Below are positions 3,548-15,485 of a DNA stretch of 64,000 bases, piece after piece; positions within the stretch are counted from its first letter, which is position 1, and each line of letters opens with the position of its first letter. The notes beneath the pieces were generated by a model that saw only the letters and a list, made by a program, of their open reading frames with translations, was not told the origin of the DNA and searched no databases. The position numbers and the translations under genes are program-made. This DNA comes from Thamnidium elegans (Eukaryota; Mucoromycota; Mucoromycetes; Mucorales; Mucoraceae), in contig JAIXMG010000029.1 of assembly GCA_025201345.1 (NCBI GenBank), positions 1-64,000 of the forward strand, written 5' to 3'.

Positions 3548-6500
3548 ATGTCATCAGACGACTGTATTCAGAAAGAAATACTGGATCATCCGACACACAT
3601 CATTCAAGAAATAATTAAATCAGCAAAAAGAAAGTTAAAACCAGAAGAGCAAAAGGAATTAGTGGAATTTATAACATCCAGAGGAATTTTAATAGATACA
3701 CCAAAAACATACATAAATTATACAAAATCAGAAAAAGTAACAATATATCAAGGATCAAGAACATTAATAGATCAATTCAAAGTATATAAAAATAAAAATA
3801 AAAACACTGTAATAGAAGAAGATATTGAAATGAATACAGAAAATAATTCAACAACAACAAGTAATAAAACTTTCTCTGAAGAAGAAGTTTTACGTTTAAT
3901 TTCTGCAGCTATACAACAACAGCAGCAACAACCACAACAACATCAACAACAATTCAGTAATCAAGTACGAATTCCTACCCCCCCTACATATGATGGTAGT
4001 AGAGATATTACAAAAATAAATAATTGGTACACTTCGGTGGAACATTATTTAAGTTTTTATAATTTTGAAAGAGCGCGTTGGGTATCCTATGCGATATCAT
4101 TATTAACAGATCATGCTCGATTATGGTACTACCGTATGGCGCAACGATCTTCTCACGATTTATCCGACTGGGAAGTATTTAAAATTAGTATGGATATGGA
4201 ATTCAAACCAAAGTATACATTACAATCAACAAGAGATAGATTATTTGAGTTAAAACAAACTTCATCTGTACAACATTACATTAAAGAATTTCAAGATGTA
4301 TTACTCGAATTAGATATCACAGAAGATGAAGCTATGGATAAGTTTGCAAGAGGATTGAAAGATCGTGCTAGGGCACATATATTACTAAAAGACCCCATTG
4401 ATTTAGAAAGTATGTTTCATTGTGCACGAACGTTTGAGTCTGCCACACAATATGGTAAATCAACAAATAGTTTTAACCCAACAACATCAGCTATCGATGA
4501 TCCCATGGATTTATCGGTTATTGAAATTAAAAAACAAAATCAACTACTTCTAAATTTATTAAAGCAACAACAAGGTTCTAACAACAATAGTTCTGGACAA
4601 AGAAGTAATAATAACTGTTTTTATTGCGATAAGATTGGACATAAAAAGGCTGAATGTAGAAATAAAAAATGGGATGAGGATAGAGGTATTTTTCAATCTA
4701 AACGAAATAATCGTAGTGACTATCGTACACAAAAACCTCGCAATAATTATAATAGTAATACTACTAATAATTACAGCACTAATAATAATAATAACTACCG
4801 AAAACCTAACAATTTTCGTCAGCAGATCAACGCATTATTAGATAGTTATGATCCATTAAGCAATAACACAAATAGTTATCAAACTAATACTAACAATGAT
4901 AACGATAATAAAAACCTAATTGATCTATCATCTTGTGATAATCAAGACTACTACTCTTATCCTATATTGTCACCTAACATTGCGCCGGAAACACATACTT
5001 TGTCATCTGCTGAAAAGTCATTTTTAAACAATGTTGATAATTCATCCAATGCGTTACCTTTATACAAAACTATGGTGGGTGGATCTAATTTCAAAATATT
5101 AATCGACAGTGGTGCCAGTACAAATTATGTACATCCTAAATTACTTTCGCACGCTTTGACAGAAAGGGAAGTTGTCAATCAGGCAGTAGAAACTGCAGAT
5201 GGTAACAAGACGAACATAAACAAAAAAATTACTTTTAGATTATTTTTAGGAAATAACCATGAACACCAAGAAGTAATCACTGCATATGTTTTTGAATCAA
5301 AATTTGATATTATCCTCGGTCGTAACTGGTTGAAAGAAACTAAGCCTAAACCTGACTGGTTTGATGACACATGGGAAGTTACTGATAAAAATACAACTAT
5401 TGTCACCAAAATATATCCTGTATCACCACCAAAAGCATTACATAATATCAATACAATTAATCCACAATTAAAAACAAAGGAGACAACTAATATTGATTAT
5501 CTAGCATCAGCTACGCAAGTAGCTAGATGGCTTAAAAAAGACCAAATAACTGAATGTTTTGTAGTAAATTTTATAGATGAAAGTACAGGTAACCACGCAA
5601 CAATCACACCAATATCACCTATTGATATGAAAGACATTCAACTTGATAAAGAATGGAAAGAAGAATTTGCAAAATTATTTCCTTATGCATTCAAAGGCGA
5701 AATAACTGAATTACCACCGAATAGACATACCAGAGATATAATTGTAACTGACCCTAAAGACGCTCCTCCTATTTTTCACCAACCGTATCGAATGAGTCCT
5801 CTAGAATTAGCGGAACTCAAAAAGCAATTAATGGATTTAGAAGAAAAAGGATTGATAGTACCAACTGCATCACCTTATGGGTTCCCTATTTTATTTGTTC
5901 GAAAAGCAGGATCAAATAACGCTGATGGAACACCAAAATTAAGAATGTGTTGTGATTTTCGCAGTATTAACAAAATTACCATTGCTCAAAGAATACCAAT
6001 ACCAAGAATAGATGAGTGTCTGGATCAATTGCATAACAGTACTTGTTTCTCACAAATTGATTTAATTGGAGCTTTTAATCAAGTTCGTTTATCTGAATCA
6101 GATTCAATGAAAGCAACAATATCGCATCGTTTCGGTCAGCATAGATTTTTAGTTGCCCCTTTTGGATTAAAGAATTCTGGTCCATATTTTCAAGATGTCA
6201 TCAACAAAGTTCTGAAGTCATTCGTAGATAAATTCGTAATAATATATGTTGATGATTTATTAGTATATTCAAAAAATGAAAGTGAACACAAAGAGCATGT
6301 AAAACAGGTTTTACAAAAACTTGATGAAGCTAAATTTGTTATAAATATAAAGAAATCACATTTCAATATGAAAGAACTGACATTTTTAGGTTATCATATA
6401 TCAAAAAATGGTATCTCTCCTTCGCAACAAAAAACAGAAGCTATTGGTTTATGGCCTATTCCCACTAATGTTCAACAAGTACGTCAATTCCTTGGGCTTA

Positions 6501-6790
6501 CCCAATATTATCGCAGATTCATTCCAAAGTTTGCGCATATTGCGTCTCCCCTTACAGATTTAACGGCGGGTACTGGTTATAAAACACGTGCTATAGAATG
6601 GACACCACAATGTCAAAATGCTTTCGATTTATTAAAACAAAAATTGTCCTCTGCTCCAATATTACTTACTCCAGATATGAACAAACCATTCCGAATTGAA
6701 TGTGATAGCTCTGATTTTGCGGCAGGTGCGGTGTTACTTCAACAAGATCAAGATAATAATTGGAAACCATTGGCTTTTGAAAGTAAAAGA
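3548..6790 (+). pseudogene. gag-pol, first part: gag, protease, RT, start of RNase H
   Basis: One continuous frame of about 1080 codons encodes the structural and replication proteins. Visible parts are a Gln-rich segment near residue 125, the gag capsid region (to about 330), a CCHC zinc knuckle CFYCDKIGHKKAEC at about 357, a protease active site DSGAS near 520, and reverse transcriptase with LRMCCDFRSIN and YVDDLLVYS near 900. The RNase H start is PFRIECDSSDFAAGAVL. Gag and pol are fused without a frameshift. The frame is cut after AFESKR by the nested DNA transposon; its apparent C-terminal residues beyond that point are read from the inserted element. It resumes in phase at 8781. Confidence 0.93.
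6783..6790. repeat. Target-site duplication of the nested transposon, left copy
   Basis: GTAAAAGA directly precedes the left terminus at 6791. The same 8 bp directly follow the right terminus at 8773-8780. Removing the element and one copy restores the gypsy reading phase, which fixes the boundaries. Confidence 0.93.
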
Positions 6791-6822
6791 GGGTCATTAT
6801 GTATAAAGGTCTCATATATTTT

Positions 6823-7746
6823 TTAAACCAATTTTTCTATCAAAGTTATAAAGTTATCAATCGATGTTTTCTTTATGCTATTAAATGTGTATAAAGGAAA
6901 AACAAAATTACTATTAGATACTTTTTTATTATTATATATTTTAGAACTAATTTCTAAATTTTTCATGAACCTTGATTTATTTTTATCATAAATTTCATAA
7001 ATATCATTAATATAATTGTCATCAATTTGGCTATTACTGTATTTTATATATATATCATTAAATAATTTTAATGTATTTCTATTATTTAGTTTTATTTTGT
7101 CAAATACACTATCTTGTTTATTCTTATGTATATTTAAATTTAGTTTACTTAGTTTATTTATAACTTTTAAATTTTCGTCGTCTTCATTTAATTTATTATA
7201 CTTTTTTCTTTTTTTATTTGTATAAGTTTTGGGATAATTTTCATTACATAATTCTTCTCCCATTTCAACATCACTTAATGTATTTGACTCCTCATATAAT
7301 TCATCTAATTCATCATCCAAAGTGTTGCTATTATCTAATTTATTTTTACATATATTACATATTTTATTATACTCATCTTCGTCATAATTTTCACAATCTT
7401 TATTTTTACATATATCAGGACAAATACATCCATTTTCATTAATTTCAAATCCACAATCTTCGCATATATTATTATTATTATTATCGTCAATATTAAAATC
7501 TAATGTATTTTCTATATTTGTGTTCTTGCTAATATGATTATATTCTTCATCTTTGTTTTCTTTTGTTTCATAATATATTTCTCGGGAGCACTTATTCTCT
7601 ATGGTTTCATTATTTTTATTTAAATTTTTATAGAATAAATTTTCTTTTTTTAATGTATTAACTCTTAATTCTAATTTTTTTATTTTTAGTATCAAATATA
7701 AATATTTTGATTTTTTAATATTAAAATATAAATTATCTTTATTCAT
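6823..7746 (-). CDS. Companion protein of the Merlin-like element: coiled-coil, Cys-rich, function unknown
   Basis: This is a 307-residue protein I do not recognise. It is Lys- and Asn-rich with a charged N-terminal helix (about 10-45) that looks coiled-coil. A cysteine cluster spans residues 95-133: CEDC, then CIC, then spaced single cysteines, then CNIC. This spacing suits a zinc-binding fold of RING or double-treble-clef type. An acidic stretch (about 140-170), a basic KKRKK motif and a C-terminal helical part follow. The start lies 30 nt after the transposase stop, so both may come from one transcript. A diverged, broken copy at 14.5-15.4 kb keeps the cysteine pattern almost intact, which suggests the core was under selection. 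A role in DNA binding or in the transposition complex is only a guess. Confidence 0.75.
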   Translation of the reverse strand: MNKDNLYFNIKKSKYLYLILKIKKLELRVNTLKKENLFYKNLNKNNETIENKCSREIYYETKENKDEEYNHISKNTNIENTLDFNIDDNNNNNICEDCGFEINENGCICPDICKNKDCENYDEDEYNKICNICKNKLDNSNTLDDELDELYEESNTLSDVEMGEELCNENYPKTYTNKKRKKYNKLNEDDENLKVINKLSKLNLNIHKNKQDSVFDKIKLNNRNTLKLFNDIYIKYSNSQIDDNYINDIYEIYDKNKSRFMKNLEISSKIYNNKKVSNSNFVFPLYTFNSIKKTSIDNFITLIEKLV

Positions 7747-7776
7747 TTATTTTTTTATTATACGTAAATTCAATTT

Positions 7777-8655
7777 TTAATCTTTTAAAAAGTTTTTCCA
7801 AATATTATATTCTCTATTCTTTTTTCTCCATTGATATTCCCTTAAATATAAGACTATGTCCTTTTTATTTCTATTTCTTGGTATAATACTTTGCTTTAGT
7901 CCATTCCATGTTCCTTCTATTGTATTTGTATGGACTCCTGTAACCGGATCTTTAAAATGTTTTTTATGATTAACTGTTTTATGTTTATATCCTATTTTAC
8001 TTAAATTATTATACCCTTTCCAACAATCTGTATATATTGTAGTACCTTTCTTAATGTATTTTTCTATTATTTCATTAATATTTTCTATATTTCTTTCTTC
8101 AATAGGTTCTAAAAATATTTTTTTATTTTCATTTTTAACTTTATTCTTTAATCTACTTCTTTGTATACCTCCAATAACCCATGCACCTTCTACACTATGT
8201 CCTTTATTATATTTTCTCTTCGCTATTTTAGTTTCATCGATTTCAACAATTTCATTTCTTCCTCCTATTTTATTTCTTGGCTTAATAAGTTGCTTATCTT
8301 TTATGTACTTTCTAAATAATTTACTATATCTACTTACTGTATTTTTATCAATTTGTAAACTTGAACTTATAAAAGACGAAGGAGCTTTACCTAAAAATAA
8401 ATATAGTATATGTAATTGAATATTTAATGGTAATCTTAACTTATTAAATATTGTTCCTTTTAATGGTGATAATGCTTTTCTGCATTTATAATATTTACAT
8501 ACGTATAACTTTTTCTTAAAATTTAATTTCATATCATAGTTACATATGCTGCACTTATCAAACTTATTCACATACTTATTTTCTATTAAGTAATTTAATG
8601 CGTTATCTTCATTGTCAAATATATGCTTCAAATTTTGATATGACTCTATAAACAT
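7777..8655 (-). CDS. DDE transposase of the IS1595/Merlin superfamily
   Basis: The 292-residue protein has an N-terminal zinc ribbon (CSIC at 35-38, CKYYKC at 53-58). A helix-turn-helix-like region (about 80-120) and an ISXO2-like catalytic domain follow. The catalytic triad is readable as Asp140 in EIDET, Asp210 in YTDCW and Glu247 in NTIEGTW. Family landmarks KRKYNKGH, WVIGGIQR and VNHKKHF are present, so the frame is intact and may encode an active enzyme. It lies on the strand opposite to the gypsy genes. The length is normal for the family. Confidence 0.93.
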   Translation of the reverse strand: MFIESYQNLKHIFDNEDNALNYLIENKYVNKFDKCSICNYDMKLNFKKKLYVCKYYKCRKALSPLKGTIFNKLRLPLNIQLHILYLFLGKAPSSFISSSLQIDKNTVSRYSKLFRKYIKDKQLIKPRNKIGGRNEIVEIDETKIAKRKYNKGHSVEGAWVIGGIQRSRLKNKVKNENKKIFLEPIEERNIENINEIIEKYIKKGTTIYTDCWKGYNNLSKIGYKHKTVNHKKHFKDPVTGVHTNTIEGTWNGLKQSIIPRNRNKKDIVLYLREYQWRKKNREYNIWKNFLKD

Positions 8656-8780
8656 ATTATATAATGTATTATTCTAAACTATATTTTTTATTTAAAAGGA
8701 AAATCAATTTTATACAAAAAGTAAAATATTCGGTGTTTAAAATTGACCTGAGACTTATATGCATATACATCCGTAAAAGA

Positions 8781-10466
8781 TATAGTAAAGAAGAAAGAGT
8801 ATACCCCGCTCAGGAACGTGAAATGTTAGCCATTCTGATTGCATTAAGAAAATGGAGATGTTTCATTGATGGTAAAGATTATGTTGTATATACTGACCAT
8901 CTCCCACTTAAATATTACAGAGATCAAAAACATCCAGTACCTCGTTTAGTACGATGGATGTCAGAAATAGAATTATATAACCCTAATATTCAATATAAAC
9001 CTGGTAAAGAGAATATTATACCCGATTTATTATCTCGTCGCGATGGACCCGATTGCAATCCTGCATCCACATCAGTACAACCAAAATATTTATATAACTC
9101 TGAAATTAATAATAACAATAATAATACTAAACATTCTTTAAGTAAACCAGTTCAGTCAATCAGGGATGACCCTATTCAAGACTGGCCCTTACAATATTTT
9201 CGTAATGAAAACCAATGGCCTCAACTACTACAGAAAGAACTCCAACAAAACAAAGAAAAATTTATAGTCAAAAATCAACATATATATAAACTAATCAAAA
9301 ATTCAAAAACAAATGAAAGCATGGAATTAAAGTTTATACCTTTTCATCAACGTGCTGATTTTATTAACAATTTCCACATAGCATACGGTCATCTTAGTCA
9401 ACTGTCAATATACCACCAATTAAAAAATAGAATTTGGTGGCCGGGTATACAACAAGATATAATTGAATACTTGAAATCCTGTGCTCAATGTCAACTCGCA
9501 AGTCGTTCGGAAAAGAATATTCACCATTCACCAATGAAACCTCTTGATATTCCTCCTGCTTTTTCGCGTTGGCATCTTGATTTTATAGGAGAATTACCAA
9601 CAACAAAAAATGAAAATAGATGGATACTTGTGGCTGTTGATTATTCGACTAATTGGCCTATTATACGTGCATTAAAAAATGCAACTGGTGATGAAATCGT
9701 ACGATTTATATATGAAGAAATTGTACTAAAATTTGGTAACCCCGTAGAGATCTTTACAGATAGAGGTGCCAACTTTATGTCTAAAGTATTGAAGCAATAC
9801 ATGAATAAAATCAGGTCAAAGCATACCTTTACGAGTGCTTTTCATCCAAGAAGTAATTCAAAGTGTGAAAGACTTAACCAAGTAATCAAGAATATGTTAA
9901 AGAAGTATGTTAATGGTGATGTTCATAGCTGGGACGAATATATTGATACAGTTACGTTTGCTTGCCGTATTCGAAAACATACTACAACGGGATATAGTCC
10001 ATTTTTCCTCGTATATGGTACTCAGCCAAGGATTCCTGGAGACTTTCATAGACCTTATATGAATGATATAACCGAATTTGATGCCAACCTGATAACTGAA
10101 GATGCTTTAACTCGTATTCGTAACCTTAGAGAAGCTAGATTCTTAGCAGAAGAAAATTTACGGAACCAAGGTATAAAGGATAAGGAAAGATAGGATAAAA
10201 TAATAAAGGGTAAAGAAACACAAGTATTTAGTAAAAACGATTTTGTACTATTACGACATGAATCTAAAAAAGGTCTGGAATACAACTGGATGGGACCTTA
10301 TCAAATTATTAACTGCAATCTGGATTTCAATGTCTACCAGATCAAAGAATTAGAAGGAAAAGTTTATAACTCATGGGTACATACAGACCGATTAAAACCA
10401 ATATCAATCAATAATAACAACTTAACAACTAGTTGGTATATTCCACGTATTGCAAGAGCACAATAA
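8781..10466 (+). pseudogene. gag-pol, second part: RNase H remainder and integrase, with internal TAG
   Basis: The frame resumes with YSKEERVYPAQEREMLA (RNase H) and DGKDYVVYTDHLPLK. Integrase follows with an HHCC zinc-binding domain (HIAYGH ... CAQCQLA), and a catalytic core with HLDFIGELP, IFTDRGANF and the glutamate in NSKCERLNQ. The C-terminal GPY/F module is NWMGPY. A TAG at 10191-10193 truncates the protein just before that module; the same frame stays open to TAA at 10464-10466. The relic at 2.2 kb has Trp (TGG) at this place, so a single G-to-A change explains the stop. Confidence 0.92.
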
Positions 10467-14146: not shown

Positions 14147-15485
14147 GAGTCATTATGTATTAAGGTCTCACATATTTTCTATAACATGTTGATATATTGT
14201 TAAATATGAGTCTTATAATTTCGTTAAAAGTCAAAAATAAGATGGTTTTTATTAATTTGCAAAAAGAAGGTTATTTTATATAAAAGTGAGATCTGAATTC
14301 AATGACCGTTTGAATATATCCGCTTATAGCTTATTGTGCTTGGGAAAATATTATATAATCTGAGCTTGGTAAAATAGGTGACGATTTGTGTAAAAGGGAA
14401 AATGGTGAATTTCCTGATGTATCACAAATATTCTAAATAGGTTCTTTAGCTGGAATCTTAATTATTACACTGAGTAAATAATTAAGCTTGTCAAATAAGA
14501 TCCAAAGCAGATCTTAAATAGTAATCAAAAGGTTAGATATATAGCTGGTATATACCACGTGTTTTCTAATAAATTTATAAAATTGTCAATGGATGATTTT
14601 TTCATGCTATTAAATGTGTATAGTGGAAATACATAATTACTATTATATATTCTATCATTGGAACATATTTTAAAACTAATTTCTAAGTTTTTCATAAGCC
14701 TTGATTTATTTTTATCATAAATTTCATAAATATTATTAATATAGTCATCCTTAATTTCTTTTTTCATGTGTTTTATATATATCATTAAATAATTTTAATG
14801 TATTTCTATTATTTAATTTTATATCTTCAATTAAATGATCTTTTTCATTCTTAGTTATATTAATATAGTTCTTATTTAGTTTATTTATTACTTTTATATT
14901 TTCTTCATTCTCATTTAATTTATTATAATTTTTTCTATTTTTACTTGTTTTAGATGAGTTTTCATTATAGAATTCTTCTTCCATTTCAATATCACTTAAC
15001 GTATTTGACTCTTCGCACAGTTCATCTACCTCTTCATCTAATTTATTTTTACATATATTACATATTTCATTATACTCATCTTCGTCATAGTTTTCACAAT
15101 CTTCATTTTTACATATATCAGGACAAATACATCCATTTTCTTTAATTTCAAATCCATAATCTTCGCATATATCAATTTCTTTACCATCATCTATATCAAT
15201 TTCTTTACTATCATCTATATCTGATTCTAATGTATTTATATTATTTAGTCTCTCTTCTAAATGTTTGTTTATTTTATCGTCAATATTATTATTTATTTTT
15301 TCTTTATTTAATGATTTGTAATAAGAATTTTCTTCTTTTAATTTATTAATTTTTTTTCTAATTTCATAACTCTAGTTACTAAATAAATATACTTTTGTTT
15401 TTTAATTTTAATGTACAAAGAGTTATAAGAAGGCATTGTTTAATTTTTATTTATATCTAAATTCAATTTTTGATCTTTTAAAAAG
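14147..15485 (-). pseudogene. Decayed second copy of the Merlin companion gene
   Basis: The left terminus GAGTCATTATGTATTAAGG (14147 onward) matches the intact element's left inverted repeat at 22 of 24 positions. Minus-strand frames between about 14560 and 15437 align along the companion protein. The pieces include the N-terminal LYIKIKKQKYIYLV, the cysteine core (GFEIKENGCICPDICKN, ENYDEDEYNEICNIC) and the C-terminal IYEIYDKNKSRLMKNLEIS. The frame is broken by shifts near the N-terminus and at about 14760-14785. The transposase is missing: homology stops at 15485, where another element begins. Confidence 0.85.

What the first reader, a model, noticed from the sequence alone, without database searches (positions are those of the whole stretch)
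6791..8772. Two-gene Merlin/IS1595-like transposon nested in a gypsy element
The sequence shows 24-bp imperfect inverted termini starting GG and an exact 8-bp duplication GTAAAAGA, and removing the element restores the host frame. It carries an intact DDE transposase and, 30 nt behind on the same strand, a 307-residue Cys-rich protein. Merlin elements are known mainly as single-gene transposons, so a compact two-gene form would be unusual. The tight tandem spacing suggests co-expression from one transcript or a read-through mechanism, rare in fungi. This is my best candidate for an undescribed system.
Basis: partly seen in the sequence, partly recalled or inferred. Interest (0 to 1): 0.78.

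Follow-up and report, generated by a model that had tools for sequence, protein, structure and literature searches.

The report
Two-gene Merlin jumping gene family
A moving piece of DNA in a mould carries the usual cutting enzyme plus a second, undescribed protein, and smaller relatives without the enzyme still carry a protein gene, which suggests that these proteins help the DNA move.

Summary
Window 6791-8772 is a 1,982-bp Merlin/IS1595-type transposon inside a gypsy element. It has an exact 8-bp duplication, imperfect 24-nt inverted ends (17 of 24 match), a 292-aa DDE transposase and, 30 nt behind on the same strand, a 307-aa protein without a known domain. The genome is very probably that of the mould Thamnidium elegans. 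Its copies show that the second gene belongs to the element. Pairing recognised ends gave 43 elements: 16 with transposase plus companion (11 family A, 5 family C, whose companion is only 43% identical to A's), 16 with the companion alone (family B), 11 with an unrelated protein of about 251 aa (family D). None had the transposase without the companion, or none of these genes. The Cys cluster is not a family feature. Relatives of the companion were found in Gilbertella and on unnamed contigs. My literature searches listed no two-gene Merlin. Best reading: a two-component Merlin whose second protein is a transposition factor, working like PIF/Harbinger's Myb-like protein but unrelated to it, plus protein-coding satellites. 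Function and co-transcription were not testable, linkage in other species was not shown, and selection within the satellites is not significant.

The parts
6783..6790 (.). 8-bp target-site duplication GTAAAAGA, left copy
8773..8780 (.). 8-bp target-site duplication GTAAAAGA, right copy
6791..8772 (-). whole family-A Merlin/IS1595-type element, 1982 bp (genes read on the - strand)
8749..8772 (-). terminal inverted repeat at the 5' (transposase) end, GGATGTATATGCATATAAGTCTCA
6791..6814 (+). terminal inverted repeat at the 3' (companion) end, GGGTCATTATGTATAAAGGTCTCA
7777..8655 (-). DDE transposase ORF, 292 aa; D140, D210, E247; four-Cys N-terminal motif C35/C38/C53/C58
7747..7776 (-). 30-nt gap between transposase stop and companion ATG
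6823..7746 (-). companion ORF, 307 aa: basic N-terminus (coiled coil by my reading), acidic middle (here with a Cys cluster), conserved basic C-terminal part
14147..15485 (-). broken family-B (companion-only) copy: right end at 14147-14170, companion pieces 14561-15407, left end missing, interrupted by about 370 bp of other sequence

Best explanation
This is an autonomous two-component Merlin/IS1595-superfamily cut-and-paste transposon. The DDE protein cuts and joins at the GG...TCTCA ends and leaves 8-bp (once 9-bp) duplications. The second protein is a dedicated transposition factor: a basic, probably coiled-coil N-terminus for pairing, an acidic flexible middle, and a conserved basic C-terminal part that I infer contacts DNA or the transposase. 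Its role would be like that of the Myb-like protein of PIF/Harbinger, but it is unrelated to it. Smaller elements with the same kinds of ends but no transposase (B with only the companion, D with a different protein) borrow the transposase in trans and supply their own factor. Shown: anatomy, ends, duplications, past mobility of A, B and D, and constant linkage in this genome. Inferred: cut-and-paste chemistry (from the family), that the companion acts in transposition, its DNA or transposase contact, and any preference for the DNA that encodes it.
For: Linkage: 24 of 24 distinct transposase loci of this type with the 3' end present have the companion behind them, 23 within 200 nt and one at 269 nt (de-duplicated by me). 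Paired-end census: 16 with both genes, 16 companion-only, 11 D, 0 with transposase but no companion, 0 without any of these genes. Persistence across divergence: A and C transposases are 83% identical, companions 43%, both genes kept. Protein-level constraint: amino-acid differences are fewer than when the same base changes are scattered, A-B companion 101 against 128.9 (sd 4.7), A-C C-terminal part 61 against 76.6 (sd 3.5), transposase 49 against 123.5 (sd 4.8); dN/dS for A-C is 0.21 in the last 87 codons of the companion compared, but 0.68 over the whole companion and 0.08 in the transposase. Mobility of satellites: of 11 family-B copies whose flanks I examined, 8 show a direct duplication (7 of 8 bp, 1 of 9 bp), 1 does not (C18, split by an A element), 1 has lost its left terminus and 1 could not be judged; 4 of 4 family-D copies show one. 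In B the leftover transposase tail has a premature stop, a 3-nt loss and a lost stop, while the companion frame is open. Of 49 merged companion loci, 40 have a right end within 150 nt; each of the other nine lies in a truncated or interrupted copy with one recognised end nearby (my reading).
Against: No functional, expression or binding data. B and D are each probably one founding event followed by recent amplification, so intact ORFs may reflect youth. Within-B constraint is weak (29 nonsynonymous, 14 synonymous events, p = 0.08), within-D absent (p = 0.34), and polarised branch tests were mostly not significant. Unrelated proteins in B and D fit 'any cargo' as well as 'required factor'. Other IS1595-domain transposases of this genome seem to do without a companion (no companion in the 240-650 nt downstream held for 4 of 5 loci read, the fifth being cut), so the reaction as such does not need one. 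The scatter test ignores rate differences along the gene, including an exchanged block.
Confidence: 0.58

Rival explanations
1. The companion regulates rather than takes part: a repressor, copy-number controller or anti-silencing factor made by the element. Companion-only elements would be selected because they dampen or titrate active copies, or protect themselves from host silencing.
For: Companion frames outlast the transposase in several A copies: among 11 paired A elements the companion is open over at least 304 residues in 9 (one of them without its first Met) and open with an in-frame insert in a tenth (C45), while the transposase is open in 7; C8, C64 and C18:28909 have a broken transposase and an open companion. 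It is the faster-evolving gene. The satellites carry two unrelated proteins.
Against: No data on silencing or expression. Four A-type loci have an open transposase but an incomplete or altered companion (C7:16406, C9, C12:1312 truncated; C45 with the insert), so the pattern is not one-sided.
Confidence: 0.25
2. The companion and the D protein are hitch-hiking passengers: genes caught between Merlin ends that spread because the element spreads, with no role in movement.
For: Transposase relatives in the same genome seem to manage without it. Within-satellite selection is not significant. Merlin elsewhere is described with one transposase coding sequence (PMC4202319 passages).
Against: The companion persists from A to C and in Gilbertella and other relatives with a conserved C-terminal part. 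24 of 24 transposase loci keep at least part of it. No derivative lacking all these genes among 43 paired elements.
Confidence: 0.14
3. Artefact or chance neighbour: two unrelated genes that happen to lie together in one insertion.
For: None found.
Against: 11 paired A copies and 5 paired C copies at different sites share the arrangement, 10 of 11 A copies with duplications.
Confidence: 0.01

Closest known systems
Merlin superfamily (eukaryotic relatives of IS1016/IS1595)
   Same: DDE_Tnp_IS1595 domain, 5'-GG termini, 8-9 bp duplications, presence in Mucoromycota (PMC8101967 passages; tested here)
   Different: Carries a second gene; has protein-coding satellites; [quoted passage not shown]
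Bacterial IS1595 family
   Same: Transposase passes NF033547; 8-bp duplications
   Different: Described with a single transposase gene (PMC8101967 passage); passenger-gene members are recalled, not verified here; no companion relative in the prokaryote contigs scanned
PIF/Harbinger transposons
   Same: Two-gene plan: DDE transposase plus a roughly 300-400 aa second protein, both indicated to be needed for movement (PMC9710019 passages)
   Different: Different transposase family; companion has no Myb/SANT/MADF match; 8-bp instead of 3-bp duplications (the 3 bp is recalled)
En/Spm (TnpA/TnpD) and MuDR (MudrA/MudrB)
   Same: Second, element-coded protein beside the transposase (recalled)
   Different: No Pfam link found; different transposases, ends and duplication lengths (recalled)

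Membership tests
Merlin / IS1595 superfamily | DDE_Tnp_IS1595 catalytic domain with D, D and E | tested here: met
   PF12762 69.6 bits (cut-off 27), NF033547 94.4 bits (cut-off 75); D140 in 9 of 10, D210 and E247 in 10 of 10 aligned sequences
Merlin / IS1595 superfamily | 8-bp (or 9-bp) target-site duplication | tested here: met
   8 bp in 10 of 11 paired A copies, 7 of 11 B copies examined, 4 of 4 D, 1 of 1 C copy checked; 9 bp in one B copy
Merlin / IS1595 superfamily | inverted termini starting GG, 24 bp or longer | tested here: met
   24 nt, 17 of 24 match, at the short end of the published 24-462 bp range
Merlin (eukaryotic) | no Zn_Tnp_IS1595 N-terminal zinc domain | tested here: inconclusive
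   No Pfam zinc match reported for the transposase, but C35/C38/C53/C58 are invariant in 10 of 10 aligned sequences
Merlin / IS1595 superfamily | single transposase gene (usual plan, not strictly defining) | tested here: not met
   Companion in 16 of 16 paired elements that carry the transposase
PIF/Harbinger | Harbinger-type DDE transposase | tested here: not met
   The only Pfam hit above cut-off is IS1595
PIF/Harbinger | Myb-like (SANT/MADF) second protein | tested here: not met
   No Myb-like match among the families listed for 13 family members, Pfam E up to 1
two-component transposon (mode of action) | second protein needed for transposition | not testable with these tools
   Needs an assay
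two-component transposon (mode of action) | both genes expressed together | not testable with these tools
   No RNA reads at hand

The most novel reading that the evidence does not exclude
A Merlin 'society': the transposase is a shared good, and each lineage of element must code, in cis, its own protein that marks or delivers its own DNA to that transposase. Loss of the transposase gene is tolerated, loss of the second protein is not, and the second protein can be replaced by an unrelated one (family D). That would explain why all 27 transposase-less elements with both ends found here carry a protein gene (its frame open in 22 of 27) and none is a non-coding MITE.
Probability: 0.25. Interest if true: 0.8.

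Novelty: new variant of a known kind. Interest (0 to 1): 0.6.

Why it matters
In the papers I saw (passages and listings), Merlin is treated as a one-gene superfamily. A second, undescribed protein family tied to it would give a new example of how DDE transposons recruit accessory factors, beside Harbinger, En/Spm and MuDR. Satellites that lack the transposase but carry protein genes run against the usual picture of non-coding MITEs, and make it directly testable whether such proteins act in cis.

Tried and rejected
Cys cluster as the key to function: rejected as a family trait, since family C, Gilbertella (P0138) and several other relatives lack it. It is near-identical between A and B (43 codons, no synonymous difference, against dS 0.86 and 0.44 on either side), which suggests recent exchange.

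zf-AD (E 0.009, below cut-off), TSC22, CH and other weak Pfam hits: rejected as inconsistent between members. Closest PDB hit for the companion profile E 1.7, not meaningful. Companion and D protein related? No support (hhalign probability 0.3).

Relatives in viral and prokaryote contigs: none. Only 2081 also fits by family (both C-type). For 1946 and 2020 the identities do not fit co-divergence well and chance is possible; 3,580,802 points to the same contig, not to adjacency. Only 120 of 772 transposase hits were listed.

Selection in the satellites: the within-B test (p = 0.08), within-D test (p = 0.34) and most branch tests are not significant. All ORF indels seen in B and D are multiples of three, but many lie in tandem repeats, so I give this little weight.

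Structure prediction was not obtained, so no fold search was made.

Full report
WHAT IS THERE. The element spans 6791-8772 (1,982 bp, 20.5% G+C) and is flanked by GTAAAAGA on both sides. Its ends match at 17 of 24 positions. It sits between two gypsy ORFs, 3548-6826 and 8664-10193, that meet at codon boundaries across the insertion. Both of its ORFs read on the minus strand: a 292-aa transposase (8655-7777) and, 30 nt on, a 307-aa companion (7746-6823). The leader before the transposase is 117 nt, and 32 nt lie between the companion's stop codon and the other end of the element.

TRANSPOSASE. It passes Pfam PF12762 and NCBIfam NF033547 above their cut-offs. D140, D210 and E247 are conserved in an alignment of ten sequences, except that D140 is replaced in one, from Mucor hiemalis. 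Four cysteines near the N-terminus are invariant in the ten. A search found 772 relatives at E up to 0.001, of which 120 were listed.

ORGANISM. The own genome has 34.1 Mb in 64 contigs. It is very probably that mould (Mucorales). A paper on another T. elegans assembly (31 Mb) lists Merlin among the DNA repeats present in all the Mucorales it sequenced (PMC7928374, passages seen).

FAMILIES IN THIS GENOME. Family A: this element. Eleven copies have both ends, nine of 1,955-1,989 bp and two longer through insertions; 10 of 11 have matching 8-bp duplications, one of them inside a B element. Family C: transposase 83% identical to A, companion 43%, five copies with both ends, of which I delimited one (1,934 bp, duplication GTAATGCT). 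Family B: companion only, typically 1,115 bp, companion 65% identical to A's, 16 copies with both ends. In one search's table the open frame spans the protein in 14 of these 16. B keeps part of A's leader and about 90 nt of a decayed transposase tail, so I infer that it derives from a two-gene ancestor by internal deletion. Family D: C-type ends, about 1.18 kb, no transposase hit, an ORF of 251-259 aa in the four copies read, unrelated to the companion; 11 copies with both ends, the frame open in 8 of the 11, four of four read with 8-bp duplications.

CENSUS. I searched the genome for both end types. The left pattern gave 58 matches (4 in the reversed-pattern control), the right pattern 54 (0 in the control). 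I used 53 left and all 54 right matches and paired the nearest ends within 4.5 kb: 43 elements, 10 unpaired left ends. Contents: 11 A and 5 C with transposase and companion, 16 B with companion, 11 with the D ORF; none with transposase but no companion; none without any of these genes. Gene presence here includes broken copies. Independently, of 26 transposase hits of this type whose 3' end is present, 24 have companion sequence within 200 nt downstream; the other two are a locus with the companion 269 nt away and a second piece of a locus already counted. Of 49 merged companion loci, 40 have a right end within 150 nt; the other nine are truncated or interrupted copies with one recognised end nearby. 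Of 48 (of 53) elements or single ends on contigs of known length, 37 lie within 60 kb of a contig end, where 13% of that length lies. Five loci with other IS1595-domain transposases of the same genome showed no companion in what I held, 240-650 nt downstream in four, while the fifth was cut at its 3' side; the genome-wide companion searches list no place in the fetched stretch of any of the five.

THE COMPANION PROTEIN. Two profile searches of 5.8 billion proteins each gave 18 hits, 19 together; each scored only the roughly 8,000 candidates sharing most words. Named ones are from Thamnidium elegans and Gilbertella persicaria (P0138). Of the 14 without an organism name, 5 have a longest contig of 1,946-2,088 bases and 3 of 1,068-1,132, close to the sizes of the two-gene and companion-only elements. 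The family has a basic N-terminal 48 residues (net +8 to +13 in 13 members), an acidic middle (-12 to -29) and a basic C-terminal part (+4 to +11), with conserved motifs such as NNRNTL, NKSRF and LYTFN. The coiled coil is my reading of the heptads, not a computed result. No Pfam or NCBIfam match passes a cut-off and no PDB match is significant.

CONSTRAINT. Between families the companion changes fewer amino acids than randomly placed base changes would, and the transposase far fewer. By dN/dS the whole companion is only mildly constrained (0.48 A-B, 0.68 A-C), its last 87 codons compared more so (0.42 and 0.21), the transposase strongly (0.08). Within recent copies the signal is weak: A companion p = 0.048, A transposase p = 0.10, B companion p = 0.08, D p = 0.34. 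Polarised branch tests gave p = 0.03 for the whole gene on branch A and p = 0.17 on branch B; of the four part-gene tests only the N-terminal one on branch B fell below 0.05 (p = 0.025).

MECHANISM. I propose a two-component transposon: the DDE protein catalyses, and the companion binds the ends or the transposase. The nearest working model is PIF/Harbinger, where studies indicate that both proteins are needed, and where the Myb-like one of a zebrafish element binds DNA and the interaction is needed for both to reach the nucleus (PMC9710019, passages seen). That the companion does this here is inference. B and D would use A's and C's transposases, whose ends they share closely. Why all 27 paired transposase-less elements carry a gene (frame open in 14 of 16 B and 8 of 11 D) is the most interesting open point, but B and D are probably only two founding events.

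LITERATURE. PMC8101967 (abstract, passages and final remarks seen) surveys Merlin across eukaryotes, Mucoromycota included, and gives the diagnostic features used above; in the parts I saw it mentions no second gene. PMC4202319 (passages seen) describes microsporidian Merlin with a transposase coding sequence of 880 bp on average. Searches with Merlin plus IS1595/fungi, two ORFs, Mucorales, accessory protein or second ORF, and for IS1595 passenger genes listed no paper whose title or abstract start reports a two-gene Merlin. The library is open-access only and Repbase was not searched.

Noticed in passing
14147-15485: A broken companion-only (family B) copy in the same window: right end kept, left end lost, about 370 bp of other sequence inserted.
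   Followed up: partly
L074 127-1304 (C6:615226-616403) and 10 further paired places: Family D: Merlin C-type ends around an unrelated 251-259 aa ORF; repeats like TGAGATGGATAA lie near the ends of L074.
   Followed up: partly
7339-7467 in the window; L061 Cys region: The Cys-coding block (43 codons) has no synonymous difference between A and B although its flanks differ strongly: recent exchange between families.
   Followed up: partly
L053 (C18:28222-31655): A family-A element inserted inside a family-B element, with duplication TCTGATTC; the B element itself shows no matching flanks.
   Followed up: yes
L047 (C52:6111-8099): A full A copy whose left flank equals that of the C45 copy and whose right flank equals that of the C22:457k copy: recombination between copies or an assembly chimera.
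   Followed up: no
1888-2160: The peptide SSGSRPMLLQYLLS...VFTRNVRIDFGV in this window also ends a predicted T. elegans protein (P0006) that starts as a B companion: an unidentified repeat, perhaps joined by a gene model's splice.
   Followed up: no
L066-L069: Other IS1595-domain transposases (ORFs of 416-438 aa from the first Met, one cut) with long acidic tails, two of them also Arg/Gly-rich; one search lists several places with equal scores.
   Followed up: partly
C45:4330-5484 in G000: The companion of the C45 copy seems to hold an in-frame insert: the open frame is 385 codons instead of 307.
   Followed up: no
genome-wide, G000: 37 of 48 elements or single ends on contigs of known length lie within 60 kb of a contig end.
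   Followed up: partly
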